A stretch of 64,000 bases of DNA, from assembly GCA_016858145.1 (NCBI GenBank), contig JAEHOE010000062.1, positions 62,001-126,000 of the forward strand. Direction: 5' to 3'. Position 1 is the stretch's first letter, and the number at the start of each line of letters is the position of its first letter. This DNA is from Edaphochlamys debaryana (Eukaryota > Chlorophyta > Chlorophyceae > Chlamydomonadales). Positions 30,132 through 63,400 of this stretch are shown here, piece by piece. The notes beneath the pieces were generated by a model that saw nothing but the letters and a program-made list of their open reading frames with translations, was not told where the DNA came from and searched no databases. The position numbers were made by a program, and so were the translations under genes.

Positions 30132-33100
30132 ATGCCAAACGAACTTGCCCGCAATTGCTCTCGCAGCCGCCCGCTGGCCCCGCCGCGGGTCGTCTCCATT
30201 GACCTGGAGACGCCAGTTCTGACCAGCAACCCCGCGGTGGTCAGCACGAAGAAGCTCTTCTTCGAGCCATCCGGCCAACCTGGCTCGCCCTTCCATGGCC
30301 CCGCCTTGACCGGCCGGCCAGAGCCGCTGGGCGCGAGCATCGACGCTGACTCGGTGAGGCGAGGAGGGTGGTGAGAGGACAGCCACAGCGGCTGGGGGGC
30401 TGGTGCCGGGGGTTGCTGGGGGTGCGTGTGTGGGAGTGAAGGTGCTTGCCATCAACGCCGGAGGAAGCCAAGCACAGTCCAGCCCCCGATAGCTCCCCCT
30501 GTAGAAGAGGCGAGGGCCAGACGCTTCCGTTTAGCTGTACCCAGGTGCTTGAGCCCCACGCCTTGGCCTCCAGCCCCCCCTAAACTCTTCACCTCCAGCC
30601 AAGCCCTAATACCCTCCCTGCGCTTCCAGCTTCCTTCCTGCCATTCCCTGCTCCCCGTTCTCCTGCCTTTCCTCAACTCCTCGCCAACCCCTGCGTTCCC
30701 ATCCCATCCCAAATCTGCTTTCTCAGGGCGCCATCAACTTCGCCATCTTCTCGTCCACCGCCTCCACGGTCTCTTTGGTGCTGTTCACGGAGTCAGACCT
30801 GGCGGCGGGTCGGTCAACGCTCGAGGTGGGGTGCGGAGGGCTCGAGGGAGGGGGGAATGTGTGACTTAGACTTGAGCAGGGTTGGGTTTGGGTTGGGTGT
30901 ACGCGCGCGAGGTGGGGTGCAGAGTGGTGGAGGGGGGGGGGTACCCAGGCAAGGGGCCTGGGGTGAACTGGGTGCATCCGCGAGAGGTGGGCCTGAGGCG
31001 CGGGACACAGAGGGTCAGAGGGACGGGGCGTGGGATAGGAGAGGAGGGGGGATAGGAGCATTGGGACGGATTTGCACGGGGCCTGGTTGCAACGACGGGC
31101 GGGAGGACTGGGGGGACAGCGCGGAGGGAGCTCCGCTGTGCGGAGTCGACGCTGTGAGCACTCCACCACAGCCAGTGAGAGCTTACGCATGGGCCAGCCC
31201 CACACGTCCCAACCCCACCCGCCATGGGGCAGGTGCTACGCCCCCCATCCTCGCGAAGGTTTCCCTGGCGTCGGCGCGTTCCCGCTCAGCAACAAACACC
31301 CCCATCCTCGCCCCCCGGGCCCCTCTTCTGCATCCCCCAGCGGTACGCCCAGGCAGCCCACGCTCTCCCTCCCTCCTGCCCCGCCCCCGTCCCCCCCTCC
31401 CCCCAGATCCCCCTGGATCCGTACGTCAACCGTACGGGGGACGTGTGGCACGTGATGCTGCCCAGCCTGCAGGACGACCTGCTGTACGGTGAGCGCCGTA
31501 CTCTGGGGCTGGGAGCTGGCGGGTGGGGTTCAGGAGGCCGGCCTTCGCTTCGCTTCAAGATGCGTGGCGGAAGTATTTGACCGTCAGTCTTATGAGTGCG
31601 CACTGCAAAGCTGTTTGCCATCGCTGGAGCCTTTCTGGGCTGAGTGGGGACTGGTGTGTGTGGGCTCATCATGGCTTCCGCATGGGCGGTCCATAGGCTT
31701 GAGCGGACCCCACTGGAGCTCGGCTTGAACCGCCCCACTTTCCCGACTTACAGCATGAATGGTCTGCACCGAAATGGCACGCATTGCAAAAGCACACGAG
31801 TGACCTCCCCCCGCCCCCCTCCTCCCCTCCCTCTTCCCCAGGCTACCGCATGGGCGGCCTGCACCAGGAGAAGGACAAGGACTACCCGGGCATGCGGCAC
31901 GACGAGGTGGGGGGCGGGGGGAAGCAAGGGGCGGAAGGGGGAGAGAAGCGTGTGTGTTTTGGGCACGCGTGGGGGCGAACAAGCCCCGGGAGTACAGTAC
32001 CCGGGCATACGGCAGGGACCAAGGGGGGGGGAGGTGGGGGCGGGGAGTCGACTGCATTCGGATGACTCTGTGCGACCCCGTGTGACGAGGCCCACGATTC
32101 CCTCCATCTCGGAATACCGGTACCCCTCTGTCTCCACGGACTCCCTGGCGTCGGCGCGATCCCGCACAGCAACAAATGCCCCTCTGTCCCTCCCCCTTGC
32201 TCCCCCCCCCCCAGACCCGGGTGGTCCTGGACCCCTACGCCGAGGCGGTGCTCAACCGCCGGCGCTGGGGCCAGATGGGGCCCAATCTGCCGTACGGGGA
32301 GCCGGGGGTGCTGGGCGTCATGCCCACGTGGCCCCAGGTAGGGGCGGGGTGGGGGAGGGTGTTGCAGTGGGGGGGGGGCGGGAGGCGGGAGGCCTGCAAG
32401 ACGGAGGCGGAGGCCATGGGTGGTGGGCTACTTCGGGCGTGGCAGGGGGAAGGCGCGGGCTGCGGGCGTGAGTGCGAGGGGCGGGGTGCGGGGTTCTCAG
32501 GGGGCAGGGGTCGAAGAAGGTTAGCCCTAGACTCGTAAGCCGCAGCCCTCGAGCCCCCTCCCCTCCCCTTCCCCCCTTCCCCTCCCCCTCCACCCCCCAA
32601 GGCCGCCGCCGCGCTGCCCTCGCTGTCGCACCCCCCCTTCGACTGGGAGGGCGACCGCCCGCTCAACCTGCCCATGGAGTCCATCGTCATTTACGAGGCC
32701 CACGTGCGGGGCTTCACGGCGCACCCCAGCTCGGGCGTGGCCAAGCCGGGTGAGCAGGGGGGGGGGAGGGGGGGCAGAGGCGCGGGGGCGGTTGCAAGTA
32801 GCCGGCAATGGGAGGCTCAAAGGTTCTCGACGCACGAGGGGCAGGGTTTAGGGACGAGGGGCAAAGCACAGCTCGGATGTCTCCAAGCCCCCTCCCTTCT
32901 CCACCCCCCCAGGCACGTACGCGGGTATGATTGAGAAGCTGGACTATCTGCAGGTGGGAGGATGGGGGGAAAGGGGGGTAAGGTTGCTACAGCCGGTGCA
33001 GCTCCTCCCAGCGGCAGCCGGCAGCTTTCGCCATGGGCACTAGAACCCCGGGGTCCAGGGGCCCGACCGACTGCTCAGCCCTGTACCGCTTCCACACCGC

Positions 33101-36100
33101 TCCAGTCCTCCACCGTCTCCTCGCCTCCCTTGCCCCCTACCCCCGTCTCCCTGGCGTCGGCGCGATCCCGCTCAGCAACAAACACCCCTGTCTCCCCCCC
33201 TGACCCCCCCTCCCCCTCTACCCCTGCCCCCCCCAGTCCCTGGGCATCAACGCCATCGAGCTGCTGCCCATCTTTGAGTTCAACGAGCTCGAGTACTACT
33301 CGCAGATCCCCGGCACGGACGAGTACAGGTGGGGCTGCGAGGGAGGGGGCCGTGCTGACGGGGCCTCCGGCCGCCGGAGGCGCTTCGAAGTTGTCGTGCT
33401 GCGGGCTCCCAATGCCTTCCTCCTTGTATTGGAGTACAAGCGCAGTGGTGCCCGACCACTTTCCCACGTGCCCGCCCCCCGACACACATGCCCACATGCC
33501 CATACACACACGTTTTCCCCCCTTGTTTCCGCCCTCCCCCCGCTCTCCCCCGCTCCCCCCCCCCAGGTTCAACTTCTGGGGCTACTCCACCGTGTCCTAC
33601 CTGTCGCCCATGGGCCGCTACTCGGCGGCGCTGGCGGACGGGCGGCCGGTGCGGGCGGCGCGGGACGAGCTCAAGCAGCTGGTCAAGGAGTGCCACAAGC
33701 GGGGCATCGAGGTGGGGTGGTTGAGGGGGTTGTGTGGCCGGAGATAATCTGGGTGGAGGGGCGTTTTGAGCAGCCGGGGTGGTTTCAAACGGAGCAGCAG
33801 TAGCCCGCAGAAACCAGCAGCAGCACGAGGTACCTGGGCGCTGGCGCAGGGGGTTGGGCTGAGTCCCCCTTGCCTCAGCCTCCTTTCCCCTCCCCCCCTC
33901 CCCCAGGTGATCCTGGACGTGGTGTTCAACCACACGGCGGAGGGCAACGAGCGGGGTCCCACCATCTCGTTCAGGTGGGAGTCGGGGGAGGGGGGGGGGG
34001 CTTTGGGGAGCGTGCGGGGGGAGGGGGGCATCAGGGCAGGTCGCTTCTTCCGTCATCCAACTCCCCTGTATCCTCCCCCCTCCTTGCCCCCCTCCCCCCC
34101 CTGACAGGGGCCTGGACAACCGGGTGTACTACATGCTGGCTCCCGGGGGGGAGTACTACAACTACAGGTGGGGCCAGAGGGGGGGGGAAGAGACTAGGGA
34201 CATACGCGGGGGAGTCTGGGGAAGTGGGTTTTGCGGCGACGGGGAGGGAGCGAAAGGGTGGCTATGGAGGTTGCCGACCTTGTTATGAGGAGCAAAGGGG
34301 GAGGGGAGGCAAGAGAGGACGATGGCAAGGGGGGCCGCGGGTGCCATGCCGTGGCAGGGGGGTGCATAGTGCGTGAGCTACTTCTCCAGTCTAGTTCAGA
34401 GCTCAAAACGTTGTCCCTCTCCCCCCCGAATCCCGTCTCCCCCTCCCCCCCAGCGGCTGCGGCAACACGCTCAACTGCAACCAGCCCGTGGTGCGCAAGT
34501 TCATCCTCGACTGCCTGCGCTACTGGGTCACCGAGTACCACGTGGACGGCTTCAGGTGGGGGGGGGCAGCTGGCTACGGGTAGTGCTAGGGAGGGGCTCC
34601 GTGTGGTTACACGCAAGTCTGTGGGGAAAAGGTGCATCAAGTCGAAGGTACCAGCCGCGCTCGGGCTACGGAACGCTCTCCCCTTCTTCCCTCAACAACC
34701 CCCCCCCACCACCCTAAACAACCTCCCCAACCTTGCCCTTGTCCTCTCCCCTCCCCCCCCGCCTCCCTTCCCCTCCCCCTCTCCCCCTGACAGGTTCGAC
34801 CTGGCCTCCATCCTGACCCGCGCCCACAGCGCCTGGGCCCCCCAGCAGTACGACGAGGTCACGGGGGAGCGAGTGGCCATGAGCAGCGGGGGGGCCATCG
34901 TGTCGGCGGAGGGTGAGGGGGGGGGAAGGGAAGGGAGAAGGGGGAAGGCAACTAGGCAAGGGGGAGGGGCAGGCAAGAGGGCGGGGGGAAGTGGAAGGGG
35001 GAATGGGGGGAAGGGGAAGAGGGTTTGAGGAGGGGCGGGGGAGCCGCGTTCGCAGGCTCTTGATTGACATGCGATGCGTCCAGGGGGGAGTGGATCATAC
35101 TACCCGTCGGCAGTCGCTGATGTTCCGATGCCGATTCACAACCTGACAAGACACACTCGCAATCCCCCCAGGCATCATGACCGACGGCGCGGGCGTGCCC
35201 ACGGGCTACCCCCTGGCCGACCCCCCCCTGGTGGAGGCCATCAGCGAGGACCCCGTGCTGCGGGACACCAAGATGATCGCCGAGGCCTGGGACTGCGACG
35301 GCCTGAACCAGGTGGGGGAAAAGGTCTGGGCAGAGGTTCAGGCATGTCGGGAAGGGGGGCCCGAGGAAGGAAGCAAGCATGCGCGGCAACTGGGCTGCGC
35401 AGGGGTGCTCGCGCTCTTGACCGTGCTGACCTTCCCGCCGCCTGCTGTCCCCCCATCCCCCGCGCTCACCCCCCCTCCCACAGGTGGGCGCCTTCCCGCA
35501 CTACGGTGGCCGCTGGAGCGAGTGGAACGGTGCGTGGTGGAGGGGGGGTGGGGTGGGTAGGTGAAAAGGCGGGCACCCGGCGAGGGGCCGCTGTCTGCGC
35601 TGTGACCACGGGCAGGTTCCCCCTCGCCGACCATGCTCCCTCTTTCTGCTCCCATAATCATTGTCATATGGTTAACTTACATTCCGGTGTTGTTTACTTG
35701 GTATCGCAGGCAAGTTCCGCGACGTGGTCCGCAACTTCGTCAAGGGCACCGACGGCCCCTGGGCGGGCGACTTTGCGTCGGCGGTGTGCGGCTCCCCCAA
35801 CATCTACGCCAACAACCAACCGCACGAGACAGACTGGTGGGAGGGAGGAGGGGCCAAGGGATCCGGAGGGAGGGGTATGGCAAGGTCTGACTGGGGACCG
35901 TGCGCCACGTTCGCAGCCCCACGCCCCGGTCCACTCTGGAACCCAGCTCATCACCCCATCCTCACCCGACGCTCACCCCCACCCCCACCCTCGCCCACCA
36001 CCCCAGGTGGGCCAACAACGGCGGGCGGCAGTGGAAGGGCGGGCGCGGCCCCACGGCCTCGGTCAACTTCGTCACGGCGCACGACGGCTTCACGCTGGCG

Positions 36101-39100
36101 GACCTGGTGAGGGGGGACCAGGATCGAGGAGGGGGTTTGAGGGGGGCTTGTTTCGTGTAGGGGCCGGAGGGGCCGGGTCCTCGCACGCTGGGCCGAGGCG
36201 GCACGTCCTCCCCTTTCCGGGGACCGAAATTCTGAGATCCTGTGTCTGGAGCCGCCCCTTCTACACGCCCCGCATCCCCCTAGAGTCGCTTGAACCCTTC
36301 CCCGCTCCCCTCCCTCCCCCCCCAGGTTGCCTACAACAACAAGCACAACGAGGCCAACGGCGAGGGCAACCGCGACGGCGAGCAGCACAACAACAGCTGG
36401 AACTGCGGCGAGGAGGGGCCGTCGGGGCGCTGGGACGTCAACGTGAGGAGGCCTTGGGAGCGGGGGGGGGGGGGCGGGGGGCTTGGGGGTTGAGGAGGGG
36501 AAGCGCCAGGGCAGGATTCGGTCCTCGGAGGGAAGGACGCGGCGAATGTCGAATCCTCCCGCCGGTTTGCTTTGCTGCGCCATACTTTGTCCATTCGGGG
36601 GTCCATTCGGGGGTCCCTGACCCTGTCCCCGCTGTGTGCACCGCCAGATGCGCTGCCAGATGCACAACTGGGCACAACTCCATGACACCATGCCCTTCTC
36701 CCCCCCTCTCCATTCCCTTCCCCCCCAGCGCCTGCGCCAGCGCCAGATGCGCAACCTGGCCTGCTCGCTGCTGCTGGCGTGCGGGGTGCCCATGGTGACC
36801 ATGGGGGACGAGTACGGCCACTCCAAGGCCGGCAACAACAACACCTACTGCCATGACTCGGACCTCAACTACCTGCGGTGAGCGCCAACGGCCGGTTTCG
36901 GTTGGATTCGGTTGGGTTCGGTTGGGCGGTTGGTTGGTGACATACCAGTAGTCGGTTAGGCTTCCGTTGAGTGCTGGCGCCGAGGGCAGAGCAGTGGGCA
37001 GAGGCCTTGTCCGGCCTCCCCAAACCATGCCCCCCTCGACCCCGCCTCCCCTCTCACCCTCCCCCCCTCCCCCCCCTGACAGGTGGGACCAGGCCGCCGC
37101 CGACCCCAACGGCTTCCTCCGCTTCATGCGCCTGCTCATCAATTTCCGCCGCGCCACGCCGGCGCTGCAGCGCACCACCTACGTCACGGACCGCGACATC
37201 CAGTGGCACGGGGAGGTGGGTTTTAGCGGGTTTTGGTGGGTTTTAAGGGTTTTAGGGAGGGGGGCAGGTGGGGGAGGTGGGAGGGAGAGGCGGGGCCGAC
37301 GAGGGGTCTGGGAGAGGAGGCCATCCACTTCCCAACCCATTTCCTTACACGGCTTTACCCTGTCCTCTCCTCTACCCCCTTCCCTCCGCTCCTCCCCCAC
37401 CTTCCCCCACCTTCTCCCAGCTCCCCAACACGCCCGACTGGACCGAGCAGTCCCGCCTGGTGGCCTTCACGCTGTCCGACGGGCAGGGCGGGGGGCTGTA
37501 CGTGGCCTTCAACACCTCGCACCAGCCCCGCCTGCTCAAGCTGCCCGCCTGGGGGGGACGCACGTGGTCGCCGCTGCTGGACACGGGCAAGGTGGGCAGG
37601 GGAGGGAAGAGGGTGGAGGGGAGGAGGGGGGGAGAGGGATGGGTTGGAAGAGGGAGGGGGGGGGGAAGGGGGGGAGGCAGAGGGAAGGGGAGAGAGATGG
37701 GTTGGAGGAGGGAGGGAGGGAAAAGGGATTGGCAGCCGCTGCTGGACACGGGCAACGGTGGGGAGGGGAGGGGAGAGGGTGGAGGGGAGGAGGGAGGGAG
37801 AGGGATGGGTTGGAGGAGGGAGGAGGGGGGGGGAAGGGGGGGGGGCGCCGCTGCTGGACGCGGGCAAGGTGGTGGGGAGGCAATGAGGAGGGAGGGGAGG
37901 GAGGGGGTGGCCAACGAGGTTTGCGACGGGGAGGGGAAGGGCGCGGGTGGAGGGCGGTCGTAACAGAGGCTGGGTCTGGATACGGGCAACGTGGGGCGCA
38001 GGTGCGGAGGCTGGGTTGTAGCTCTACAGTCAAGACCTCCCCCCTCTTCTCCCTCTCCCCCCCCCCTTCCCCCCCTTGCCAGGTGGCGCCCTACGACTTC
38101 CTGGCCCCCGACGCCGCCCTCTCCCCCGAGGACGCCGCCGCCGCCCGTCGCTCCCTGGCCATGTGGACCGCCGACCACACCTACCCCGTGCTGCCCTGGA
38201 CGTGCGTGGTGCTGGTGTCGCAGCTGGAGGACCCCTCCAGCACCGCCATGATCAAGTGAGCGGTTGGGAGTTGGCGGTTGGGAGTTGGTGGTGGTGCGGG
38301 GGCCCCAGGCACCCGGCACGCCTGCCCCGCCGGTTCTTCCGCCCCGCTATGGTGCTAGCTTCCGGCTCCTCCGCTGAACTACTGGCAAACGCCTTGTTGA
38401 AGCCCCACACTAAAACGCCACGCGCTCTCCGCCCCCATTCCCCCTCCTCCCCCCCCCTCGCCCCGCAGGCGCTCCGCCTCCTCCTCCGCGGGCGCCCCCC
38501 GCTCCGCCTCCGGCCCCGCCAACCCCATGACCTGGGCCAGCAACCTCATCAGCAGCCAGGTGGGGGGGGGAGCGGATGGGGTTTCGGGGTATGGGGCGGA
38601 CGCTGGTGTGAAGTGAAAGCCGCATTGGCACGCCACTGCCCTTGATAGAGCCCAGCGCGTGCTGACCGTTGCCTGCCCTTCGCCCCTTCCCCGCTCCCCG
38701 CAGCCGCCGCCCATGCCGGGCCAGCGCTCGCCGGCGCCCGCGCCCTCGTATGCCTCCGCCTCCCCCATCGCCGCCGCTGCCTCCCCCACGATGCGCGCTG
38801 CCACCACCTTCGACCCCCCCGCCGCCGCCGCCTCCAAGCCCGCCGCCGCCGCCAGCTCTGGCGCCGCCGCGGCTAACGGCCGCAGCAGCCACTCCAACCC
38901 CGTGGTCGCCGCTGCGGCGGCGGCAGCGGCCGCCGCCAAGTCAGCGGCAGCGGCAGCCGCCGCTGCTGCCGGCCGCGGCCCGGCGCCGGCCGCCAGCCCG
39001 GCCCACGCCAACGGCAACGGCAACGGGAATGCTGCCGCCGCCGCCGCCGAGGGCAAGCGGGCGTCCGCGCGTCTGAACTGGCGGGCGATCGCTGAGGCTG

Positions 39101-42056: not shown

Positions 42057-45000
42057 TCACGGCGTCAGCATCACGTCCTGGTACGCCACCAGGAACTCGC
42101 CCACCATTCCGCGGTCGGGCGCCGAGTTGGCCATGCCGTACACCGGCGCCGAGCCGCCGCCGTCGCCCTTGCCGCCGCCGCCGCGGCCCTTGGCCGCTGC
42201 CGCCGCCGCCAGCACCTCCGTCACGCCCTGGCGCAGCGCCGCCACCAGCGGGGCCGAGGAGCGTGCGTTCATAGCGGTGAAGCAGAAGTGCAGCGCCGGG
42301 GGTTTCTGTGGGCGAGGGAGGGGAAGGGAGGGCAGCAAAGGCGGGTGCAGGAAGGGTAACGGCGCAGGGATTTCTGTACGTGGAGGGAGGCAACGCGGGT
42401 GGCCGGGGGTTCTTGTAATCGAGACGGCAAGAGAATGGAGCGGAGGTGAGCGGAGGAGCGGTGAGGGACTCTGGGGTTGGAGGGCCGGGCGCTAAGGCAC
42501 GCAGGGAGCAAACGCTGAGGACGCGCACTTGGACTTGGCGCAGGACCGCCCCCCGACCGCCCCGCCGCAGCCTCCTCGCCCGCTCAGGCCGACCTCCGCC
42601 ACACGCTCCCTTCCCCTGAGGACTCAGGGCCCACCGCCTTCAGTCGCCCACCCCACCTGCAGCGCGTTCAGGTGCCAGCCGTGCGCCGTGAGCCAGTCGT
42701 TGAGCAGGTAGATGTTGAGCGGGGGCTGGCCGCGGGGGCGGCGCCAGCGGGGGTTGGGGCGGAAGGCCACCACGCCCATCTGCGGGGAGGGGGGTGGGTG
42801 GGCGGGGGGGTGGGGGTCAGCGTCGTGGGAACGCAGAGAAGAAGGGCTTGGAGAGGGAGGGGGCGGAAGGCCAACGCGCCCGTCTGCGGAAGCGGGGTGG
42901 GGTGGGGAGTGGCGTGGCGGGAAAGGGCGCGGATGGAAGCCGGGCAGGCGCAGGAGACGCGCGCGAGGGGGGCACGCCCGCGCTGCTGCGCTGAGCAATG
43001 AGCGAGGGGGTGCGGAGCGTGACGCGGTGGCGAGGGGCGAGACGCCCAATCCCTACCGCCCCTTACCGCCCGCCCCCCGTCCCTCACCTCGGGCTCCCCG
43101 ATGACCTGAAGCTCGGGGATGGTCTCGCGGATGCCCTTGACCAGCGTGTCCCTGGAAGGCGAAAGGGCGCGAGACAAGGAGGTCAAATGGACGATGGAGG
43201 GCTCTTTTCAGCGCTCAATGGACGCAACAGAAGTCAATAAAAACGGTGAGGGGTCGAGGCGAGGGCGGTCGTGGGCAACGGCGGTTCCCGCTCTCAGGCT
43301 GCAATTTTGGATTGAGCACCAGCCAGCGGCCCGTCCCGGCCTCTAAAGCCTGCCACACCGCGGTACCCGCCGACGGGCCCTGTCCCTGCCCTAGCCCTAG
43401 CACTGACCGTCATGCCGCCTTCCGCAAAGGCTCCTCGCCCCCTGACACGACAGGCGTGTCCCCCCTGCCGAAAACCGTGCACTGCTCCCCCCCCCCAGGC
43501 ACCCATCGGCCCCCCCCGGCACCCACCTCGCCGACAGGATGGCCCCCGTGGCCGCCAGCAGCCCCTCCTCGCCCACCGCCACCAGCGCCGCCCAGGCCGT
43601 GGCGATGAGGGCACCGGGGCGGGAGCCGGCCAGACCCGGGGAGATGTACAGGCCGCCAGACCTGCGGGGGGTTGGTTGGGGCCGGGGGCGGGGGGCATCA
43701 GGTGGACCAGCCTGAGAGGTGTTTGGCGGTGGGGACCCCGCAAACCCCTTTCCTTTGAGCAAACTCCCGGAAACGCCCTCCCCCGCCGGACCCTCGCTCC
43801 GTAACGCACGCCCACTGACCAGTCCGTGACGCGCGTGTACTGGTGCTGCCGTATCTCGGGGCTGCCGTACAGCACCACCGACGTGCCCTTGTGCGCCATG
43901 CCGAACTTGTGTGCGTCCACCTGACAGGGGGGGGAGGGGGGACGACCTTGCTGTCCGGCCTGATCCTGATCCTGACCCTATTCGGCCGGCTCCTGCCTGA
44001 TCTTCCTCCCCGGCCTCCCCGACGCGTCTGACCCTTGTCTGCTCCCCCCCCCTCTTTTCCCCCCTCCCCCCCACGCACCGACATGCTGGTGACCCCCGGC
44101 ACGCTGAAGTCAAAGGGCGGCACCGCCGCGCCCAGGCGGGTCGCGAAGGGCAGGCAGAAGCCGCCCAGGCAGCCGTCCACGTGGCAGCACACGCCGGCGC
44201 GGAGGGCCAGGCCGGCGATGCCCTGGGGTGGTGGGGTGGTGGAGGTTGGGGGGTCGGGGGGTGTAGGTACACAGCAACTAACTGAGGGTCTGAGTGTGGA
44301 ACGCAGAGGGAGGCGAGGGAGCCAGGCAGACGATGCCCTGGGGGTGGGGAGGCGGAGTCGGGCGTGGAGGATCTGACCAACCATGCCGTGGGGTGTGCAG
44401 CGGGTGGGATGGCGGGACTTCTCTTGACACTTTACACGCGTGGGTAGGGATGGCATTGGACAGACGTACGATGTACGACAGATGCCGTACGCACCTGCAC
44501 GTCGTCCACCAGGCCGTGCGGGAAGCCGGGCGCCGAGGCCACCACCAGCACCGTGTTGGGACCCATGCGGCGCCGTACGGCGGCGGGCGAGAGGCGGAAG
44601 TCGGCGCCCACGGGCACCACGTGCAGCTTGATGCGGAAGTACTCGGCCGCCTGTACGGCAGTTCGTACGGCAGGAAGGGAGAGGTTCGAGCCGTTAGCAT
44701 CGGCCACATGTACAGAGTGCAAGGCAGTGCAGACGCTTGGTGACAGTAGGGACCTGACCGGGCGGGAGGAACAGGAAGCGAGCCGTGAGCACGAAACACC
44801 CGCACGGGACGCAGGGCAGATTGGTGTGCGAACGGAATGCACGGAAACGACTCCGAGCTCGGGCCCGGACCGGACTCACCTTCCAGTATGCTGCGTGCGC
44901 GGACACTCCGATGATCATCTCCGGCTCCCGAATGCCCTTCTTGGCGCACACGTAGTCGCGCGAGGCCTTGACGGCCATGAGGATGGACTCGGTGCCCCCT

Positions 45001-48000
45001 GAGGTCATGGCGCCGCAGACCTGACAGGGGGGGGAGAGGGATGGGGGGGGGAGGAGAGGGAAGGGGAGAGGGGGAGCAGGGGAGGAGGCCATGGGTAGCA
45101 CAAAGGGAGGAGGAGGAGGAGGAGGCTGGGAGCGGGGCGTTCCTCCAGAGCAGGGCGGCTGATGGCGAGCGGTGAGGCGGACGTGTGTGCGGGGTCAGGT
45201 AGCGTTCACGGGCCGCTGCGGCTAGGGCCCCGCGGTTGGATGCGGCCGCCGCCCCACGCACCCACCTGCGGGTTGGCTCCCTTCTCTCCGCCCCCCAGCA
45301 GCCCCGCAGTCATGGCCACAACCTCGGCCTCCATCTGCCGTACACTGCAGGGGGAGGGGGGAGGGATGGGGGGGCGTTGGTGCTGCTGTGGAGGGCCCCC
45401 ATCGCTATCGCCACCATAACCAAGCCTCCGCGGTTGGTGAAGCGTAGGCCAGGACACGAGGGGAGGCGAGGGGGGGCCCTCTTGAGGCCCATGACAACTC
45501 CATTTTGCCCCCCCATTTCGGCTCTGCGCCGGATTCGCGCGGACTGACTGACAGACTGTGTACAGACACCCCTTGCTGGCTGTGCAGGAGCCGCCCTGTT
45601 AGTCTAAAACGCCTTGCTGTTAGTCAGGCGGCAGGTCGATTGCCGCATCACGCACGCACCTGGGGAATGCGTCTGCGTGCAGGGGGTTGGCGAGCGCGAA
45701 GAGGCGGTAGGCATCGTCCAGGAGCGCCCGGTGGGGGGAGAGCGCGGGCATGTAGACCGCACCGGAGAGCGTCGAGGTGCCGTCGCCGTGGAACTGAGGT
45801 GGGGGGTGGGGGTGGGGAGGGGCCTGTTGAGGGCGACGCGCACGTCCGTCCGCGCACGGCCCGGTCAGCTTCCCCTCTGGGCTCCCTGATGCCACCATAC
45901 GCGCGCTGCCCGCGCCTCCGCAGCACTGCAGAGGCTCTCTCCGCCTGCCGTACCCGCATCGGCCGCTCCGCCAGCCCCCCATGAGATCCCCGTACCAACC
46001 CCCTCCCCCCCACCCCCGCACCACCGACCCCCCCAATTCACAAGCCCCCTCCCCCCACCAGCCCCCCCCCCACCTGCACGTCCTTGCTTGCGCGCTGCTG
46101 CAGCCACGTCAGCACCACGCCCGGTGGGGTGCTGCGGGCGGGCAGCGCCAGCAGGCGCGCGGGGGCGGCGGAGGGCACTGGGGCGCCCAGGACCATGCCG
46201 GGCAGGTGCTCGGGCGCCGCGGCGGCCTGCGGGGTGTGGGTCAATGCTGGCAAGGTGGGAGGAGTGAGAGAGGGAGGGGAGTCGGGAGCGCCGCGCCGAC
46301 CAACACCTGTGAAGGTCTCTAGCTTCGTGGTCAACTGGACCCTCCTGCCCCCGCATTGGAACTGGGCCTCCCTGCTGGCCCAAGATCCCTCTCCCCCCCC
46401 CTCCCCTTTCCAGCTCCCCCTTCCCCTCCTCGCCCCACCTGCGCCCCCCTGGCCCAGCACCCCCCTTTACCCGTGCTATCACCGCCCCCCCCCAACTCTG
46501 CGCCCTCCCCACCCCTCCACACACGCACACACCACCTCAGCAGACACCCCCCCCCCACCTGCGCCTCCCTGCTGGCCAGCATCCCCCTTGACCCGTGCTA
46601 TCCCTTTGAGCTCTGCACCCCCCCTCCCATCCTCCCTCCCTTCCCCTCCCATCCTCCCTCCCTTCCCCTCCCATCCTCCCTCCCTTCCCCTCCCTCCCTT
46701 CCCCCTCCCCTCCCCGCCCCCCACCTGCGCCTCCCTGCTGGCCCAAGGTCCCCCTCCCCTCCTCCCCCCCTCCCCCCTCCCCCACCTGCGCCTCCCTGCT
46801 GGCCAGCAGCTGCGCCTTGAGCTTGGCCTTCTCCCGGGCCAGCATGGCAGCCACTGGGGGGAGGCGGCGGAGAGCGTCGAAGAACACGGGCAGCAGGCCG
46901 CGCTCCTGAGGGCGGACAGGCGGGGGGGGAGGGCGGGGGTTAGGGGGGGCAGGGGGTTGTGGAGGCGGGGGTTGGGGGGGCAGGGGGGGAGGGCGAGGGA
47001 GAGGGGGGAGGGTTTGTAATGCGGGGGGTGCCGGCAGCCATGGGATGGGGGTGGCAGGGGCGAGGGGCCCTGGAGGCGGGGCCGGGAGGACGAGGGGCCG
47101 GGGTGGGACCGCGCTGGCAGCACAGGGGCCTCGCCTCTAGCGCCGCCGCCTTGTGAGTGCCTCGCCTCTAGCTCCACAGCTCCTCAGGACCCCCGTCTGC
47201 TCCCCCCGGCTGCTCCCCCGTGCCGGCTCCCGGCCGTGACGGCGCAGCGGCTGCCGCGTGCTTGCGCCTGCTGGCCCCCGTGCCTCAACCCTCGCCCCTT
47301 GCTCCCCGTCCTGTGCCCCAAGAATCCCGCCTGCTCTCCACCCGTGTGTTCGGTTCCCGTCCCGTGGAGACAGTGGAGGGGTTCCTGTGGCGCCTCTCTG
47401 AGCTGCCGCAACGCTCTTCCCGTGCCCCCGCTCCCCATCCCGTGCCCCCGCTTCCCGTCCCTTGCCCCACTCCCCCACTCCCCTCCGTGGCGGCGACGCG
47501 GCGGCTGCTCACCCGGAAGGGCCGCAGCACCCACCCCACCCCACCCCACCCCACCCCGCGCCACCCCACCCCACCCCTACCCGGAAGGGCCGCACCGCCC
47601 ACGCCAGCAGGCGCAGGGCCAGGTAGAGCAGCAGGCAGGCGACACAGGTGCCTGCAGCGGAGGGGAGGGGACGGGGAGGGGAGGCGGGAGGAGGGGGGTT
47701 GGAGTGGACAGGCGAGAGGGAGCGGGGAGAGGACGTGAGGGGAGCGGAGCGAAAGCGGGACGCGGGTGCAGTGGTTGCGGAAGGGGGGGCGGTGAAGGCA
47801 CTATGCTGGGCAGAGCTCGTCCACGGTCCAGGTCCAAGGCGTGCGCATAGCCGGCCTCGCACAAACGGAGGGTTGGGCGCCGGGCAGCTGGGAGCTGGGA
47901 CACGTGTCCGGGCCTTGGCACTCCGGCCATACCCCGGCCGCTCGAGGCGCCTAAATCCTGCTAGAGGCGCTCTCAGCAACCCAGGGTGCAGACCGGGTGC

Positions 48001-52916: not shown

Positions 52917-55043
52917 ATGTCCTCAACGCCGCCCCCGCCCGGCACACCACCTCCTGCGCCGGACGCAGCGCACGACCCGAATGCCCAGCATCAGCCAACA
53001 CAGGCTCTGGATGCTGGCGCGGCTCCGCCCGCTGAGCCGGGTTTCTCTCACTTTGACAACCCCCCGGCCGGCTTTGGGAGTTGGACGACAAGCCCGTGGT
53101 ACTGCTGGGGCTGCTCGCGAGGGAACTGCTGCTCGGGATGCTGCGCATTGCAATGCGGTGAGTTCAGAAGCGATGCCGCTCTCGTATGCTCACTGTGCCC
53201 CCTCGCGAGCTCTTACACGCAAAGTATATGTACACGTGACAACAGCTGCCGGGATGCGGGGGCTCGTTGGCCGCTCGGCTTCAGCCCGGCGCTTACAGCC
53301 GTGTGCCCGCCGGAGCACACCCTTCTACCTTCCACCCCCTTGGTCCTCTTTCTGGGCGCCGCGACTAGCACTTCCGCCTTCCCTGGGGTGGAGGACAATA
53401 CTTACATTGCTGCGGACACTGATACGATGCCAGCTCATGGTCCCATAGAGGTTGGGCCCAGTTGGGCGCACCCCAACGCGCCTGCCCCTCTCTCTTGCCC
53501 CGCCCTGGCCCGCCTCCTTAAAGCTCTTAATTCCCAGGCCCCTGCGCGCGAACATCAGCTTCCCACCTAACCTGTCCCAGCTCCCGCCCACCCTCCCTCA
53601 CCCTCCCTCACCCTCAACCCCCTCTCCCTAGGCTTCTGTTTTCCCTGCATCCTGTACGCGGACACTCACTTCCGCCTCCACGGCGACTTCTTCTGGAGCC
53701 GCTGCTGCCTCTTCCTGTGGTGCTTCCCCTTCATGCGGTGCATATTCATGGCCAACACGCGCAAGGTGGGGCCCGGGCTGGGCCCGGGGTTGTGAGATGG
53801 GGCCCGAGGCTGGGCCGGAGCCGAGTGCTGTGCAGCAAGGCGGGGTCCCTTGAGCGCTGTGGGGCGAGGTGGGGCCCGGAGCTGAGAGCTGGGGGGCGAG
53901 GCTGGGCCCGGGGCTGGGTACTGGGGGTGAGGTGGGGCAGGGCAGACGGGCTCGGGCTGCCTGCGAGTCCGCATGGGCCAGGCACAAGCAGGGCTACAGC
54001 AGAGGAGCGATGGGCGCAGACGCATGGAGCCACACACTCTAACCAGCTCTGGTCAGGAATCATGGCCGACTCAGGTCTTGTGGCAAGCTAATGCGCATCT
54101 GCGCCCTGTCCTGATGCCCGGTCGCCAACGCGTTTGTCCTTCCTGTTCTGGATACTGGTACCCCTCAGGCTCTGCGCATTAAGTACGCAGACGCAGGGCG
54201 CCACACAGTTTAAACGCCTGTTCTGGCAAGCTCATTCGCATTTGCCTCTTGTGCCCTGTTCTGGATACGCCCCAGGCTCTGCGCATGAAGTACGCCCTGC
54301 CCGAGGGGCCCTGCAGCGACTGCTGCCTGCACTTCTGGTGGGAGGGTCGGGCAGAGGGGCCTGCACTTCAACCGGGACTGAGGGAGGGGGTCCTGAGGTG
54401 CAAGGCGCGCCTTGCAGGGGAAGCAAGGGCGGTGCAGAGGCAAGGGAAGGCAGGGAGCCGGCAAGTGCTGCCAGCACTTCTGGTGGGGTGGGAAGGGTGG
54501 GAAGGGGGGCAGAGGGGCCTGCACTTCTGGTGGGAGGGAGGGAGGGGGTCTGGGCGTGGTTGGGGCAGTCTGCAGTGAAGGGCTTGGAGCAATGAGGGCG
54601 CCTGGCGGGTGAAGGTTCCTGTGCCTGCATCCACCCCGCCTGTGGGGTTTTGACTGCTCAACGGCACGTACGGTAATGACCCATCCACCGCCCCTCCTTG
54701 CTGCAGGTGCCCCCTCTGCGCGCTGTGCCAGGAGGCGCGGGAGCTACAGCAGCGCGGGGCGCCGTCGCCCGCCGCCACCGCCCCCGAGCCGGGGGCAGCG
54801 GGCGCCGCAGGCCCGGGCGGGGCCCACGCGCTCGCACAGCCCGGGGCCTCGCCCCAGCACCCACCCCACCCGGGCGCACCGCCGCCCCCGTACCCGCAAC
54901 AGCAGCCGTACCCGCAGCAGCAGCCGTACCCGAACCCGGGTGGCCCCATGACACCGCCAATGCAGCAAGCGGGCATGGGCCCGGGGATGGGGCCGCCGCA
55001 GATGCCCCAACCGGGCGCGTACCCAGGCGGGCGACCATACTAG
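52917..55043 (+). CDS. PLAC8-family Cys-rich protein, 4 exons
   Basis: Predicted exons: 52917-53157, 53632-53765, 54276-54337, 54707-55043, giving 257 in-frame residues. The PLAC8 core spans the exons: GCCALQCGFCFPCILYADTH, then a hydrophobic stretch (WSRCCLFLWCFPFMRCIFMA), then LRMKYALPEGPCSDCCLHFW joined to CPLCALCQEARELQQRG. The CC-LPC-like pair and the terminal CPxCALCQExRELxxR signature are diagnostic. Family members are small, often membrane-associated; in plants they affect cell size and metal or calcium handling. The role here is inferred only. The N-terminal 40 residues are Pro/Ala-rich. The C-terminal ~75 residues are Pro/Gln/Gly/Met-rich with YPQQQP repeats, an extension seen as cytosolic linkers in other PLAC8 proteins. 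Confidence 0.92.
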
Positions 55044-55067
55044 GCGGCGGGCGCGCGAAAGTGGTCG

Positions 55068-55286: not shown

Positions 55287-55340
55287 GGTCTAGGGGGGTG
55301 CTGTGGGGGTCTAGGGGGGTCTAGGGGGGTCTAGGGGGGT
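55287..55340. repeat. TCTAGGGGGG tandem repeat, G4-prone
   Basis: Four units of GTCTAGGGGG plus G, the first separated by GTGCTGTGGG. G-runs of five or six spaced by three to four bases could form a G-quadruplex. The array is bracketed by CACAGCCGGGT copies. Confidence 0.85.
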
Positions 55341-56353: not shown

Positions 56354-59300
56354 ATGTACCCGTATTGTGGCCGATGCCGATGGGGCCTGCTAGCGCTACT
56401 CTGCTCATTAGCGCTTCCGATGAGCCTTCTCGGTGGCCACTGGGAGCCGCGTCCAGAGTGTGTCGAGGCTTGTGACACCTACGGCAGGCGAGTTAGTTAT
56501 AGCCTTGGGCGTGTGCAGTGTCGGCAGTCGTTTCGGCAGTGTCGGCAAAATGCAACGCGATGCACGAGCGCTGCGAAACGGATAGCTGCTATGCTCGCAG
56601 ATGCTTGACTGCGGAGACGTACGAGAGCTCCATTAGCTGCTGGACGGTGCGTTGCGCGCGCGACGAGTTGGAGTACGCACCACGAACCAGCAGGGTTTGC
56701 CCCCTCCTGCCCCCGCGCTTGGCCCCAGGGCCCTGGGCCATTCCCCGCCCAAGCACACACGTGCCTATCATGAATTGCTGAGGTGAATATATCTGCCTTG
56801 TTGCGCTGATATGTCTAGCTTGCGGCGGATGCCCCTGGATGCCCAGGATGACAAGACCGAGATCCAGACGTGCACTCAGGCGCGCAGCAGCGCATGCGGT
56901 GAGGTGAGCAAGGTGGCTGCTGGCTGGCTGCCTGGCCGTTGCCCCTTCCGGCCCCTATCTCGCCCCTGCATGTCCCCTGTCCTCACGAAACCCACTGCCT
57001 TGTTCGTCACCATTTGAAAGGACACCCAGGGCGAGCTACATTGGCTCGACCTCCTCCGCTGTCCTTGCAAATACGGTACAGGACCGGTACGAAATCTCGA
57101 GGCGTGTGGAGAAGAGCGTGCACCTGAACAGCTGCAAGAGGACGGGCTGCGACGGCGGCGGCTGCCCGTGAGTCGTACATGTACGAGGCACATTGTACGG
57201 CAGGCTGGGCGGGTCGCAGTGCACCGGCGCTTGCCTCCTGGGATGGAGTGCCGTCGTGCCTTTGGGGAGGGTCGCTGTTTGGACCCCTCCGGGTATCAGT
57301 AATGGTATTCGGCTCCTGAAGCCACTTGCTCACCACGTCACCAGTGTCATGGTGCCGTCTTGCCATTGTCGTCTGCAAGGGCCTGATGTCTGCAACAGTC
57401 TTTTAGGGCCCCTCGAGTCTGTACATGCGGTTGCGTGACTCCCAACCCTGTGTTGCGCAGGTCCGGTTGGGCCCAGGTGGATCGAGTCAAGTGCGAGGAC
57501 TGGCTGTGGCGGGACTACCACAAGGTACGGTCTGTACCGTACTGCCAGAAGGCCGACAGGGGCTATGCATGGCCGCGGCAGGGACGGAGTCACGGAGGGC
57601 CATGGGCGGGACCGCGAGTCCGCGAGCGACCGGGACCGTGGGGCCAGGGGCGGGGCCCTCCCTCGAGCAGCTGATGCTGCCGCCCTGCTGACCTGCCTCC
57701 TGCATGCATGCCTCGGGCCCACAGCTCCACGCCCCACCCCGCCTGCCGAGCAGGAGAAGTGCTGCCAGGAGTGGACCGTGTGGACGACCACGTGCGCCCT
57801 CACCACGTGAGCGGTTGGGTGCCGTGGAGCACAGTAGCGGAATCACAACTCACGAGGGACGGAGTGGGTACACTGTTGGGGCCCAGAGGAGATCTGACAT
57901 ACGTGAGCCAGGACCCGTGCCCATGAGAGTGCATGCGGTGCCTGGGGGCGGGGGCACGCATGCGTGGGCCTACGGGCTCGAGCAAGGCCCAGCCAGGACC
58001 CACAGTACGGTGTCTTGTTCTCGCAACTTGAAATTCGTCACCCTCGCTCTCTCGCAGGGCGTGCACATGGGTCGAGGAGCCGCCCCCGCCTCCTCCGCTG
58101 ACGCCCCCGCCTCCTCCTCCGCCCCCTCCGCCACCTTCGCCCAACCCATCGCCTCCGCCCCCCCCACCCGCGACCCCCCCGCCTCCGCCCCCGGACCCCC
58201 CGGCACACCCTGCCCCTCCAGACCTCTCGCCGCCTTCACCTTGGCCCCCGCCACCGAACCCTTCACCTCCGCCCCCACCACCCGACCCGCCCCAGCTCCC
58301 ACCATCCCCTCCCCAGCTCCCGTCACCTCCCCCACCCCCGCCCCCGTCCCTGCCCCCATCTGTGCCCCCAGCCCAGCAGGAACCTTCCCCACCCCTGCCA
58401 GACAGCTTACCATCACCTTCTGCACCCCCTGTAGTGCCCAGCCCACCCGCCGACCCTCCACCTGCGGCAACCCGCCGCCCCCGCCGTCCGTCTCGCCCTC
58501 CGAGACAGCCCGCGCCTCCTCCCGCGCCGTTTTCAGGCGGGCGGGGCCAGTGCCGGGCGGTGTGGTCTTTAGACCCGCCCATAGGCTTCGAGGGCAGTCG
58601 GGAGCTGGATATCAAGGTCCGGCTGAAGGGGTGAGCGTGCTGTCGCAAGAATGCGAGGTACCGGTGTCCCTCGGGCCAAGGGAGGGGGGAGGAACAGCGA
58701 ACGGTATGGGATAGGGCCAGTTGAGTACTGGCAAGGAAGGCGGTAAGGCGCGTAAGCCCCCGTGGGTGTCACTCTGTTTCACCGACTTCCGTCCTGCTTC
58801 CCGATTAAACCTCTTGCCGCCAACAGCTGTACGACCAGGCCGATCAAGCCCTCACAGATCGAGGTGGGGGTGGCAGCTCCGTCGTCACGCACGCAGCCCC
58901 TCGCCGCCCTGGTACCCCCCTCCCCCCGCGCCCCTCCCCACGCGCAAATCCTTTGGCCCCATCGATGACACTCCATCCCAAATCCCACGTGGCACATGCA
59001 CGCTGTGTGCTCTTAACAAACAATCACTGATTCCCCACACTGCAGGTTCGGGTTGGCATCACGCACCCTAACGCGAGTGCGCTCGAGTTGAGCCTCATCA
59101 GTCCCAAGGGCGTAGTGCTCAGCCTCCTGCGGAGGCCAGGTGCGTGTACTGATACAACTGCCCTCATGCCACCTTGGCTGCCAGTTCCCTTTCCTCTTGC
59201 TAAGAGATTTCAGACATACATCCCTCTCCGTCATTCCTCGACCGTTGTACCCCATCTTTCTTAGCAAGAAGCCTCGCCCTAGACGGGGTGTACGTCTTTA

Positions 59301-59740: not shown

Positions 59741-60423
59741 CGAAGTTAGGGGCAACGCCAGGCGAGCGGTCAGGGCTGGTGTTGTGGTGCAGCGGTACGA
59801 GGTATTGCGTTGAAATGGCCTCAGGTCGGGAAGAGGCTGTGTGAAGCCCTGATGGGCTGAATGCACAAGAGGCACAGGCTAGGCGTCCGTCGCTAGGCGG
59901 ATAACCCCGATTCGGCCAAGTGGACGGCACGGCCAGCCACAGAGGATGAAGGACGCCAACTACAGCGGGGCATGAGAGGTCAGGGCAGGGAAAGGGGCGC
60001 CTTCCGCTGTTGTGCCGCATGTTTGTGCTACATTAATGATTCTGACAAGCGAGGAGGCTCCAGCCACGATTACCGGTTTTTGGACAATCAGGATGTAGTT
60101 TCCAGGAATGGACCTTGGGCTCCCTCGCTCAGTCGCTCTCCTCTTGAGGATACCCGGAGGCACCCTCAGGAAGGAGTGGGGGCGGAGTGGGCCGGAGTGG
60201 GGGTGCGCGGGGCATTGCCGGAAGCGGTGCCATCATTACCGGGAGCAAGCAACTGGAGTGCAGCCCCTCCCAGAGCTTGTTCTTCCCAGGAGGGGGCCCA
60301 GGTTGCGGGGGCGGCGGTGTGTTTTACGAAACGTGCCGCAGTACAACCGCGCCCGCCCAGAGCCTCCTTGGGTTCTCCGCACAAAAACGCTGCATCGACT
60401 GTAAGGGCGTCCCGAATAAAAGG
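59741..60423. other. Intergenic between tandem paralogues
   Basis: No gene is supported. It must hold the 3' end of the first paralogue and the promoter of the second. Confidence 0.5.
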
Positions 60424-63400
60424 ATGTCGCGAAGGCACGGGCGCCTGAAACAGCTGCTGGTCACTCTGGTGTGGTGCATCGCGCGGCCTTCGCCTTCTAT
60501 CGCGAGCCACTGGGAGCCCAATCCCAACTGCGGCACCTGCAACCTTTCATTCGGCAGGTCGGTCACGTAGAGCGTTAGTACGCTGCAGGCGGATAGCGAG
60601 GTGAACACTCCGAGACGGCATTTACGCCAGCTGACTTCAATTATCGCTCTCAACGTGCTAGGTGTTGGTCACGAGATGCTCAAGAGTTCATCGCGGTTTG
60701 CCCCGAGGTGAGGCGCGGCCGTCCTTGGGAGTAGTACACTGACTTGCCCGTGCCCGTTCGGTGCGTGCCTCGCCTCCCTCCGCCCCTCCGCCGCTTCCAG
60801 GCCCTTGTGCCTCACGACGGTTGCAGATGATGCTGCCTGAGGCTGTTTGCATGCTAGCGTACCGGGGACCCACAAGGTCTTCACCTCACTTTGCGAATCA
60901 CACCTAATTCCTACCCAACCCCTCTCTGATCCCGCCCTCCCTCGTTGGCCGAAGTCCATGCCCGAACAGGGGCCTCTAACCCCGCCCCTGCCTAACCCTC
61001 AATTCTCCCTTCCTGGCCCCCCTATAACGACAGGGCTGGGACGAGGTCGGCTGCCGGGTCTGATCGTGATCAATCCTACCCTCTCCCTACCTGACAGGGC
61101 TGGGACGAGGTCGGCTCCCGGGTCTGATCGTGATCAATCCTACCCTCTCCCTACCTGACAGGGCTGGGACGAGGTCGGCTGCCGGGTCTGATCGTGATCA
61201 ATCCTACCCTCTCCCTACCTGACAGGGCTGGGACGAGGTCGGCTCCCGGGTCCAGAGCGACGTTGACCTGAACGACTGCAAGTGGACGGGCTGCGACGGA
61301 GGAGGCTGCCCGTGAGTCCCCTCCGGCGGGTGGCCGCGGTTGTTCAAAATAGATCCCTTCGGTTGGCCTCGTTGCATGGGGGTGATGGGCCTCCCAAGCA
61401 CAACATGTCATTGAGCCACGACCTACGGCTGAGGGTTACATCCGGGCATGAGGAGTTACGCTGTGCCTGACAAGAGATCCGTATTCGTCCCACCCCACCC
61501 TGGAATGCGTGTGCGTCCTTTGTAGCTCCGGACGCAAGGAGGTGGATCGAGTCAAGTGCGAGGACTGGCTGTGGCGAGACTACCACAAGGTGTGTTCGGG
61601 GTGTCAGGGCGGCCGGGGTGCCTCAGGGCAGGGCACGGCTGCGCGTTGACTTGGGCCGCCCGCTGATGAACCTCCTGGCCCCCCCTCCTTGGCGCTTCAG
61701 GAGAAGTGCTGCCGACAGTACCTGACCTACTACAAGACCTGCCGGGAGATCCTGTGAGAACTTATCATGCGCGGGGTACGCTGGCCCCTACGCCGTACAT
61801 ACCGATACTCTAGGCAAACCTGTCACTACCCCGCCTTATCCTACCTTCACACCTCACCCTCACCACGCTCGTGTCGCTCGCTCCATGCCCCGCCGCCCCG
61901 CAAGCCAATCTACCGGTATAACCGGTAGCTATGAGCTCGCCTTCTCCTATCTGCCCAACTTCTCATTCCAACCACCTCATGCATCCTTCCTCGTTCCACC
62001 CTCACTACCCCACAACAAGCAACCACTCACCCAACCCCGCTCGCCCCCAGGCCCTGCATTCTGACCGATGAGCCGCCCCCGCCGCCCCCGCCGCCGCCCG
62101 CGCTCGGCTACTGGCGCTACACCCCTGTGCACGGCTGCATGGGACACGACTGCGAGACCGACTTCTGCAACGAAGTCAGCTGCAGAGCTGGGAAGCCGGA
62201 CGAACACGTGTAAGCAAAGGGCCATGTCAGAGGGGCGTTAGTCTGGGGGGTGTTCTGCTCTGTACGGTACGTCCTGATGCCTGGATGCCCCTGGAGGGTC
62301 CGATTAAGGGCTCTGAGGCAGGCAGGGGCTCCTGACTGCAACCCTGGTGGTGCGCGGCTCGCTCGCTCGGAGCTAGCACAGTCGTTCAACCGGGCCCGCG
62401 CGCTGTCCCCGTGGTGCCACACTGCACGCGCCTGGGCCTGCCCGCGCCTGGGCCTGGACCTGGACCTGGGCCTGGATGGGCCTGCCCGCACCCCGACCTT
62501 GCCGCGTGCCACGCCGCCACCCGCTGGAATCTGCCCGCAGGTGTGAGACCCAGTGGTATGAGGAGTTCGGAGGGAAGGCGTGCCCGGAGGGCTACGCACC
62601 CAGCAACCCCTTCCCCTTCGCCACGGACTGCATGTGTGAGACGAGCCTCGATCGATGGGACCGCAGGCTCAGGACTTTGCTCAAGTCTTGTCCGTCAGTC
62701 TGGGCAGTTTGGGTTTAGGGTTGAGGGCTTGATGTGCAGGTGGTGTGGCCGTTTGCCCGTGTGGCCGCAGGGACCGGATGCGAGTTCGGAGGCTGTCCGT
62801 AAGTAGGGTACCGGTGCTCAGCGTGCATGGCCATTACGTACACATGACGTGTACGACTAGGCGCTGAACTTGTCACGCAAGCCCCGCCCGTGACCTTGGG
62901 CGTCCCTTGACAAGCTTCCTTCCCGGTTACTCACAGGAGTGGTTACGTCCAGCAGGAAAGCAAGGACTGCGCCTGGTACCAGCCCACAAACGGTGGGGCG
63001 GAGCCTCCGGCTGGGCGAGCCGAGCGAGCGGAGACATGTAGCGAACGGCACCGGGCGGGGGCCTGACAGGGGCTTGGGAGGGGGCCCGTGCAGCCGCGGT
63101 GGGCACTTGAGGCAGCACAGCGGGTTTCAGGTTGAGGCTGGGACGTTGCGCCCCTTTGTTTCCGCGGCCGCCTGCTCTCCGCTTCGTCATCACGCACGGG
63201 CTTAGGGGACAGGTCCCTATGAGTTTTCACTCCCTCACTCCCTTCCCCCCACGCGCACGTGCCCCCCCAGAGAAGTGCTGCAAGACCATCTGGCTCATCA
63301 ACTGCCGCAGATTGCTGCCCTGTGATGCTGAATGGATCGCCTACCCGTCCAGTGAGCGGTTGTCGGTTGGGCGTTGCTTGGCATACGATGGGCCGCACAG

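What the first reader, a model, noticed from the sequence alone, without database searches (positions are those of the whole stretch)
30819..61248. Splice-site-spanning duplications recur in introns of at least four genes
Short segments covering an exon edge plus its splice site are copied into the neighbouring intron. Donor cases: debranching enzyme exon 2 (30819 copied at ~30900), exon 4 (31885 at ~31998), exon 21 (37570 at 37734, 37849, 37974); lyase exon 2 (47581 at 47514) and exon 3 (46784 at 46557, 46721 and weakly 46438); PLAC8 exon 3 (54328 at 54482 and 54520). Acceptor cases: lyase exon 9 (44222 at ~44335 and ~44388) and exon 13 (42779 at ~42885); PLAC8 exon 3 (54276 at ~54171); Cys-rich gene exon 3 (61226 at 61030, 61094, 61158). 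All sit in GC-rich introns and each creates decoy or alternative splice sites. The junction is favoured over exon interiors, which random slippage does not predict. It could reflect intron growth, a splice-coupled duplication process, or selected alternative splicing.
Basis: seen in the sequence. Interest (0 to 1): 0.86.

Follow-up and report, generated by a model that had tools for sequence, protein, structure and literature searches.

The report
Splice sites copied into neighbouring introns
In this green-alga-like genome about one sampled intron in fourteen holds a same-direction copy of its own exon edge, usually with the splice site, typically about 120 bases from the original; the copies most likely come from small tandem duplications that lengthen introns and are predicted to be harmless because the original splice site would still be used.

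Summary
With a gene finder of my own on 344 kb (window plus nine other stretches), and after dropping three doubtful cases, 25 of 341 predicted introns carry a direct copy of an adjacent exon edge (15 donor, 10 acceptor). Filtered local repeats are 99 direct, 1 mirror, 2 inverted. Spacing has median 122 bp; the exon piece is short (up to 53 nt) and shorter than the intron piece in 25 of 25; no exon-intron copies were found from 600 to 4000 bp. Junction-spanning pairs exceed rotated annotation, 23 against 10.6 (P = 0.0005). Introns with copies are about one unit longer than expected, so the best account is small tandem duplication across the border, which grows introns. Much of the junction excess follows from geometry and from exon copies staying recognisable longer. 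A splicing sieve is inferred. Selected alternative splicing is not supported: mismatches ignore codon position, spacing ignores frame, and using the copy gives a frameshift or stop in 21 of 25. Against the simple version, flanking intron is recognisably duplicated in 10 of 26 cases where about 22 were expected, so junction-directed short copying is not excluded. No RNA data or related genomes were available. New variant of a known kind.

The parts
31883..31906 (+). donor edge of debranching-enzyme exon 4; copy from 31998 (offset 115)
31841..31857 (+). acceptor edge of debranching-enzyme exon 4; weak copy at 31673-31689 (offset 168, 16 exon nt)
   Evidence: near the score limit, AG not kept
30819..30836 (+). 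donor edge of debranching-enzyme exon 2; weak copy near 30906 (6-7 exon nt)
   Evidence: by eye; not in the 25 counted
37566..37595 (+). donor edge of debranching-enzyme exon 21; copies at offsets 165, 277 and 399
   Evidence: flanking intron also duplicated
47581..47598 (-). donor edge of S1P-lyase exon 2; copy ending at 47513 (offset 68); the copy is followed by GTGAGC, the original by GTAGGG, so which is used is open
   Evidence: not in the 25 counted
46774..46808 (-). donor edge of S1P-lyase exon 3; copies ending at 46725 (offset 61) and 46559 (offset 227), weakly a third near 46438
   Evidence: offset 227; offset 61; third: by eye
44206..44228 (-). acceptor edge of S1P-lyase exon 9; copy at 44321-44343 (offset 115)
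42756..42816 (-). acceptor edge of S1P-lyase exon 13 (24 exon nt and intron part); copy at offset 104
54266..54295 (+). acceptor edge of PLAC8 exon 3; copy at 54159-54188 (offset 107)
   Evidence: not in the 25 counted, because my gene model starts inside this exon
54321..54346 (+). donor edge of PLAC8 exon 3; copies at offsets 145 and 192
61029..61252 (+). 64-bp tandem array, 3.5 copies, across the acceptor of Cys-rich gene exon 3; no such array at the paralogue near 57.1 kb, whose exon 3 has the same length
   Evidence: not in the 25 counted, because my finder did not call the gene

Best explanation
Direct copies of exon edges, most with their splice site, lie about 120 bp from the originals in the adjacent intron, and they most likely arose as small tandem duplications straddling the exon-intron border that would be tolerated because the exon-side splice site remains the one used. 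Shown: same orientation, local only, spacing 100-140 bp in 16 of 25, exon piece shorter than intron piece in 25 of 25, introns longer by about one unit, no sign of coding use of the copies. Inferred: the DNA event is an ordinary small tandem duplication (slippage or fill-in repair of staggered breaks) that can occur anywhere; duplications inside exons are lost when they change the protein; those across a border survive if the outer site still wins. Inferred sieve: the copy must carry little exon, so that it is a poor competitor, and must lie far enough from the true site. What survives decays as neutral intron and stays recognisable because its source exon is conserved.
For: Orientation and range: 99 direct, 1 mirror, 2 inverted matches. 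Exon-intron matches at score >=17, block C4 left out: 18 direct at 20-200 bp, 5 at 200-600 bp (two from the dropped satellite, two further copies of counted cases, one to another exon's edge), none from 600 to 4000, none inverted or mirror. Length budget: introns with copies median 353 bp, other introns 208; minus one unit 224, length-biased null 238. Flanking intron similarity beyond control in 10 of 26, pooled P 4e-9 (dropped satellite included). Neutral copies: mismatches 14/188, 16/187, 21/190 over codon positions; spacing mod 3 is 10/7/8; use of the copy gives a stop or frameshift in 21 of 25. Outer site used: the predicted isoamylase aligns without a gap across the exon 2, 4 and 21 borders to 4j7r, the lyase without insertion across the exon 9 border to 3mad (exon 2 and 3 borders lie outside that alignment). 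Gain: the Cys-rich paralogue has no array and the same exon 3 length. Sieve: acceptor-like sites near true acceptors against control: 3 v 35 within 40 nt, 14 v 35 at 40-80, 12 v 19 at 80-120, 10 v 7 and 5 v 5 beyond; acceptor-side copies leave at least 67 nt of intron (my subtraction, table). Literature: the upstream 5' site wins under exon definition, the intron-proximal site under intron definition (PMC9225289, passages).
Against: Flanking intron is visibly duplicated in 10 of 26 cases, where neutral decay of a whole unit predicts 21.6-23.5 (16.3 with very frequent indels). One case (C5 38703) has 31 of 31 identical exon nt and no flank similarity. Exon pieces are much shorter than random breakpoints predict (mean 23-29 against 54-55 nt, P <= 5e-6); a minimum intron piece of 80 nt removes this only for gapped lengths (P 0.77), not for ungapped ones (P 0.01). 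For donors decoy depletion is mild and only within 40 nt (37 against 55), so the donor sieve rests on inference. Junction share 25 of 30 exceeds several geometric expectations. The splice site itself is not kept in 3 of 15 donor and 3 of 10 acceptor copies (one of these by a 1-nt shift), and in C2 11771 the copied stretch starts 14 nt inside the exon. A length-squared bias would weaken the length test (null 281, 97.5% at 350). Exon-exon pairs are not depleted against rotation (15 against 13.6).
Confidence: 0.6

Rival explanations
1. Junction-directed short copying: a process tied to splice junctions or transcription inserts a 20-50 nt patch (exon edge plus splice site) about 100 nt into the intron, without duplicating the intron between.
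For: No visible flank duplication in 16 of 26; most copy ends lie just past the splice site; exon pieces 9-44 nt ungapped, 12-53 nt gapped; junction share 25 of 30.
Against: Introns are longer by a full unit, not by a patch: minus 35 nt leaves 318 bp against 238, P 0.0003 (0.02 in the no-flank subset; not significant under length-squared bias). No inverted or distant copies. Flank is duplicated in 10 cases.
Confidence: 0.17
2. Ordinary tandem duplications with no splicing sieve at all: geometry, loss of exon-internal events and longer visibility of exon copies explain everything.
For: Expected junction share up to 0.68-0.73 against 25 of 30; direct local repeats are also common outside genes, though many of those are satellites.
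Against: Exon pieces are too short for uniform breakpoints (P <= 5e-6 without a minimum intron piece); decoy acceptors are depleted near true ones.
Confidence: 0.13
3. Selected alternative splicing: the copies are kept because the duplicated sites are used.
For: GT kept in 12 of 15 donor copies; 9 of 16 donor copies as strong as the original, one of the 16 later dropped.
Against: That retention is about what the 9% divergence of the copies predicts; no codon-position or frame signal; 21 of 25 would give a stop or frameshift. Regulated unproductive splicing is not excluded.
Confidence: 0.05
4. Chance, low-complexity or assembly artefact.
For: G- or C-rich introns; one of my own hits (C5 39981) proved to be a satellite edge.
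Against: Mirror, inverted and mismatched controls are near zero; most copies differ from the original and have different flanks.
Confidence: 0.02

Closest known systems
Intron gain by tandem genomic duplication of a proto-splice site (PMC2891723, passages; PMC4974935, listing only)
   Same: Local tandem duplication interacting with splice sites; can leave the mRNA unchanged.
   Different: There the duplication makes a new intron between two copies of a proto-splice site. Here an existing intron is lengthened; the hallmark (upstream exon end resembling the intron end) is absent beyond chance.
Small tandem duplications from slippage or staggered-break (patch-mediated) repair (recalled; three papers using the term seen in the listing, none read)
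   Same: Direct, adjacent, about 100-bp units.
   Different: Here the survivors are sorted by splice junctions and have a short exon side.
Splice-site competition in duplicated-site constructs (Reed and Maniatis, as described in passages of PMC9225289)
   Same: Two near-identical sites compete a short distance apart.
   Different: Natural rather than engineered, and the exon-proximal site appears to be the one used (protein alignments only), as expected for exon definition.
Introners (definition recalled)
   Same: A source of recurrent intron sequence.
   Different: No dispersed family seen: exon-intron copies are only local within the sampled blocks.

Membership tests
small tandem duplication | copies in direct orientation | tested here: met
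   99 direct, 2 inverted, 1 mirror
small tandem duplication | copies close together | tested here: met
   no exon-intron match from 600 to 4000 bp
small tandem duplication | locus longer by one unit | tested here: met
   353 minus unit = 224, null 238; weaker under length-squared bias
small tandem duplication | whole unit, intron part included, is repeated | tested here: inconclusive
   10 of 26 visible, about 22 expected
intron gain by AGGT tandem duplication | upstream exon end resembles intron end, or intron start resembles downstream exon start | tested here: not met
   0 introns at >=13 of 20 on either side, 0.23 and 0.50 expected; one partial case, L022:5297-5502
introners | one sequence family dispersed over many introns | tested here: inconclusive
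   no distant exon-intron matches within blocks; five whole-genome DNA searches gave self, one paralogue and otherwise short matches or, many matches to G- or C-rich parts by position
duplicated or mutually exclusive exon | whole exon with both splice sites copied | tested here: not met
   copied exon piece at most 53 nt with one splice site at most
selected alternative 5' or 3' splice sites | both sites used in mRNA | not testable with these tools
   no RNA data; frame and codon tests are negative
templated insertion by alternative end joining | some copies inverted (recalled feature) | tested here: not met
   no inverted exon-intron copies

The most novel reading that the evidence does not exclude
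A splice-junction-directed copying process is active in this alga: it reprints the last or first 20-50 nt of an exon together with its splice site about 100 nt into the neighbouring intron, seeding introns with full-strength decoy sites, so that splice choice must run by exon definition.
Probability: 0.17. Interest if true: 0.8.

Novelty: new variant of a known kind. Interest (0 to 1): 0.5.

Why it matters
About 7% of sampled introns carry a duplicate of their own splice-site region, typically about 120 bp away. That is a natural version of the classical duplicated-splice-site experiment, with very roughly ten thousand cases in the genome if the sample is typical (360 predicted introns in 344 kb, scaled to 142 Mb), in which cDNA can say which copy wins and how much exon a site needs. 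It also names a concrete way in which introns of these algae, noted as conspicuously long with the cause unknown (PMC8226300, passages), could grow in steps of about 120 bp. It argues against reading such decoys as functional alternative sites without RNA evidence.

Tried and rejected
Intron gain by duplication of AGGT was tested and not found. Inverted, mirror and distant copies were tested and not found. Paralogue comparison by whole-genome DNA search helped in one case; the others gave only self and short matches or matches in G- or C-rich parts (their composition was not checked).

Dropped from the count before the final figures: intron 276 (C5 39981; scored as a donor case until one search showed at least 11 copies of a 115-bp satellite running off the block edge), intron 284 (match of intron start to downstream exon start), intron 110 (copy from exon interior, 52-74 nt inside). 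Introns under 80 nt were left out (18 of 360). The complexity filter can remove real G-rich copies; the nearest lyase exon 3 copy (offset 61) is missing from the scored list. still include intron 276 (numbered 278); searches do not. Exon and spacing values were entered by hand, with a slip (65 for 61 at lyase exon 3) mended; automatic values there give the same picture (spacing mean 127, median 123; exon piece 9-44 nt). The five intron-only events used for the junction share are those with 60-190 bp spacing in introns without a junction copy (introns 52, 55, 124, 134, 345); five further introns with such pairs hold a junction copy or the dropped satellite.

Literature searches on duplicated or decoy splice sites, tandem duplication with intron gain, intron length in Chlamydomonas, mutation accumulation and patch-mediated duplication showed no report of this pattern in the rows listed (several lists were capped, and the library lacks most subscription journals), so this is not proof of absence.
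Full report
WHERE IT IS. The window lies on a 141.9-Mb, 502-contig assembly; its GC is 66.8%. That paper's passages describe conspicuously long introns in all six annotated species and leave open what sets the length.

GENE MODELS. No annotation was available, so I wrote a hidden-Markov gene finder and trained it on the fetched DNA. It predicts 45 genes and 360 introns in 344 kb. It misses the Cys-rich gene and lyase exon 2, and its PLAC8 model starts inside exon 3. The predicted isoamylase aligns without a gap over 753 residues to PDB 4j7r, across exon borders 2, 4 and 21. The lyase aligns to sphingosine-1-phosphate lyase 3mad from residue 76 on: no insertion at the exon 9 border, a one-residue gap near exon 13, and the exon 2 and 3 borders not covered. 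PLAC8 and decarboxylase domains are found by Pfam.

IS IT REAL. Last 30 exon nt against own intron: 15 of 270 score >=14; reversed intron 0; inverted 0; other introns 0.05 expected. First 30 exon nt: 3 of 270 at >=14 and 7 at >=12, against 0.05 and 0.88 expected. Windows 50-80 nt inside exons: 1 of 190 and 1 of 197 at >=12, as in their controls. With filtered ungapped matches over 342 introns: 99 direct, 1 mirror, 2 inverted. The position profile is 0.4-1.4% more than 24 nt inside the donor-side exon, about 5% at the donor and 2.5-6.2% over the first 100 nt of intron (mirror background 0.2-2.2%); at acceptors it is 0.6-1.0% more than 24 nt inside the exon, 2.6% at the border and 1.2-4.6% in the intron. 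So the junction stands out against the exon, not clearly against the intron.

ANATOMY. After dropping three cases, 25 of 341 introns in 14 genes have a copy: 18 of 266 in the first 264 kb, 7 of 75 in the later 80 kb. Spacing to the nearest copy: mean 120, median 122, 16 of 25 between 100 and 140; automatic list mean 127, median 123. Exon piece: 9-44 nt ungapped, 12-53 nt with gapped extension. Intron piece: at least 38 nt (70 in the automatic list). Exon piece shorter than intron piece in 25 of 25. Exon-intron copies are direct and local only.

WHAT MADE THEM. Three lines favour tandem duplication. First, orientation and range. Second, length: introns with copies have median 353 bp against 208 for the rest; subtracting one unit gives 224, the length-biased null is 238, and subtracting only a 35-nt patch leaves 318 (P 0.0003); a length-squared null (281) would not reject the patch. 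Third, flanking intron similarity beyond control in 10 of 26, pooled P 4e-9. One line pulls the other way: with exon-copy divergence as the clock, about 22 of 26 flanks should be visible and 10 are. Rapid turnover of G-rich intron sequence could explain this but was not measured. A single gain is polarised by a paralogue in the window: the Cys-rich gene at 61 kb has the 64-bp array, its paralogue at 57 kb has none and the same exon 3 length and frame; loss in the paralogue is the less simple reading.

WHY AT JUNCTIONS. Junction-spanning pairs: 23 of 64 against 10.6 with rotated annotation (P 0.0005); exon-exon pairs are not depleted (15 against 13.6). Geometry predicts a junction share of 0.39-0.51 with equal visibility and 0.56-0.68 with twofold visibility, or 0.62-0.73 with the visibility ratio of about 2.6 suggested (my arithmetic). 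Observed: 25 junction against 5 intron-only events, one-sided P <0.0001 at 0.39, 0.0015 at 0.56, 0.010 at 0.62, 0.049 at 0.68 and 0.14 at 0.73. A modest residual preference is possible, not established.

WHY THE EXON PIECE IS SHORT. Uniform breakpoints predict a mean of 54-55 nt; 23 (ungapped) to 29 (gapped) is seen. Requiring at least 80 nt of intron removes the discrepancy for gapped lengths (P 0.77) and leaves P 0.01 for ungapped ones. For acceptors there is independent support: acceptor-like sites are depleted up to 80-120 nt upstream of true acceptors. For donors the depletion is mild and within 40 nt, so I infer instead that a decoy with little exon is a poor competitor. PMC9225289 (passages) reports that under exon definition the upstream 5' site wins while intron definition favours the intron-proximal one; tolerated decoys with conserved outer-site use would fit exon definition here. 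Not tested with RNA.

FUNCTION OF THE COPIES. None detected. Mismatches to the exon are spread evenly over codon positions (14/188, 16/187, 21/190), spacing is a multiple of three in 10 of 25 (8.3 expected), and using the copy gives a frameshift or stop in 21 of 25. GT survives in 12 of 15 and AG in register in 7 of 10, about what 9% divergence predicts; so copies seem neither kept nor purged for their sites. Of 16 donor copies scored (one later dropped), 9 equal or exceed the original in strength.

VERDICT. A real, recurrent feature that is best read as intron growth by border-straddling small tandem duplications filtered by splicing. The bolder reading, junction-directed short copying, stays open because of the missing flanks.

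Noticed in passing
window 1-5255: Tandem array of a 92-bp unit, about 57 copies at 98% identity.
   Followed up: no
window 9813-13830 and 14725-21109, minus strand: Two long predicted genes whose translations look like retrotransposon polyproteins (named by eye, no domain search).
   Followed up: no
window 57122-57526 and 61266-61591: Paralogous Cys-rich gene pair: two exons 91 and 98% alike, the intron between not matching.
   Followed up: partly
L021:9135-10000 and L033:1-600: 115-116-bp tandem array with at least 11 copies; each copy seen holds a donor-like CAG/GTGGGG.
   Followed up: partly
L022:5297-5502: Predicted 206-bp intron whose first 17 nt resemble the start of the downstream exon, as expected of an intron made by tandem duplication; single case.
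   Followed up: partly
sampled introns of 80 nt or more: Acceptor-like sites are depleted up to about 80-120 nt upstream of true acceptors, a wide exclusion zone.
   Followed up: partly
L007:1522-1551: A 30-nt stretch 14-44 nt inside an exon is copied into the upstream intron without the acceptor; it is one of the 25 counted cases.
   Followed up: no
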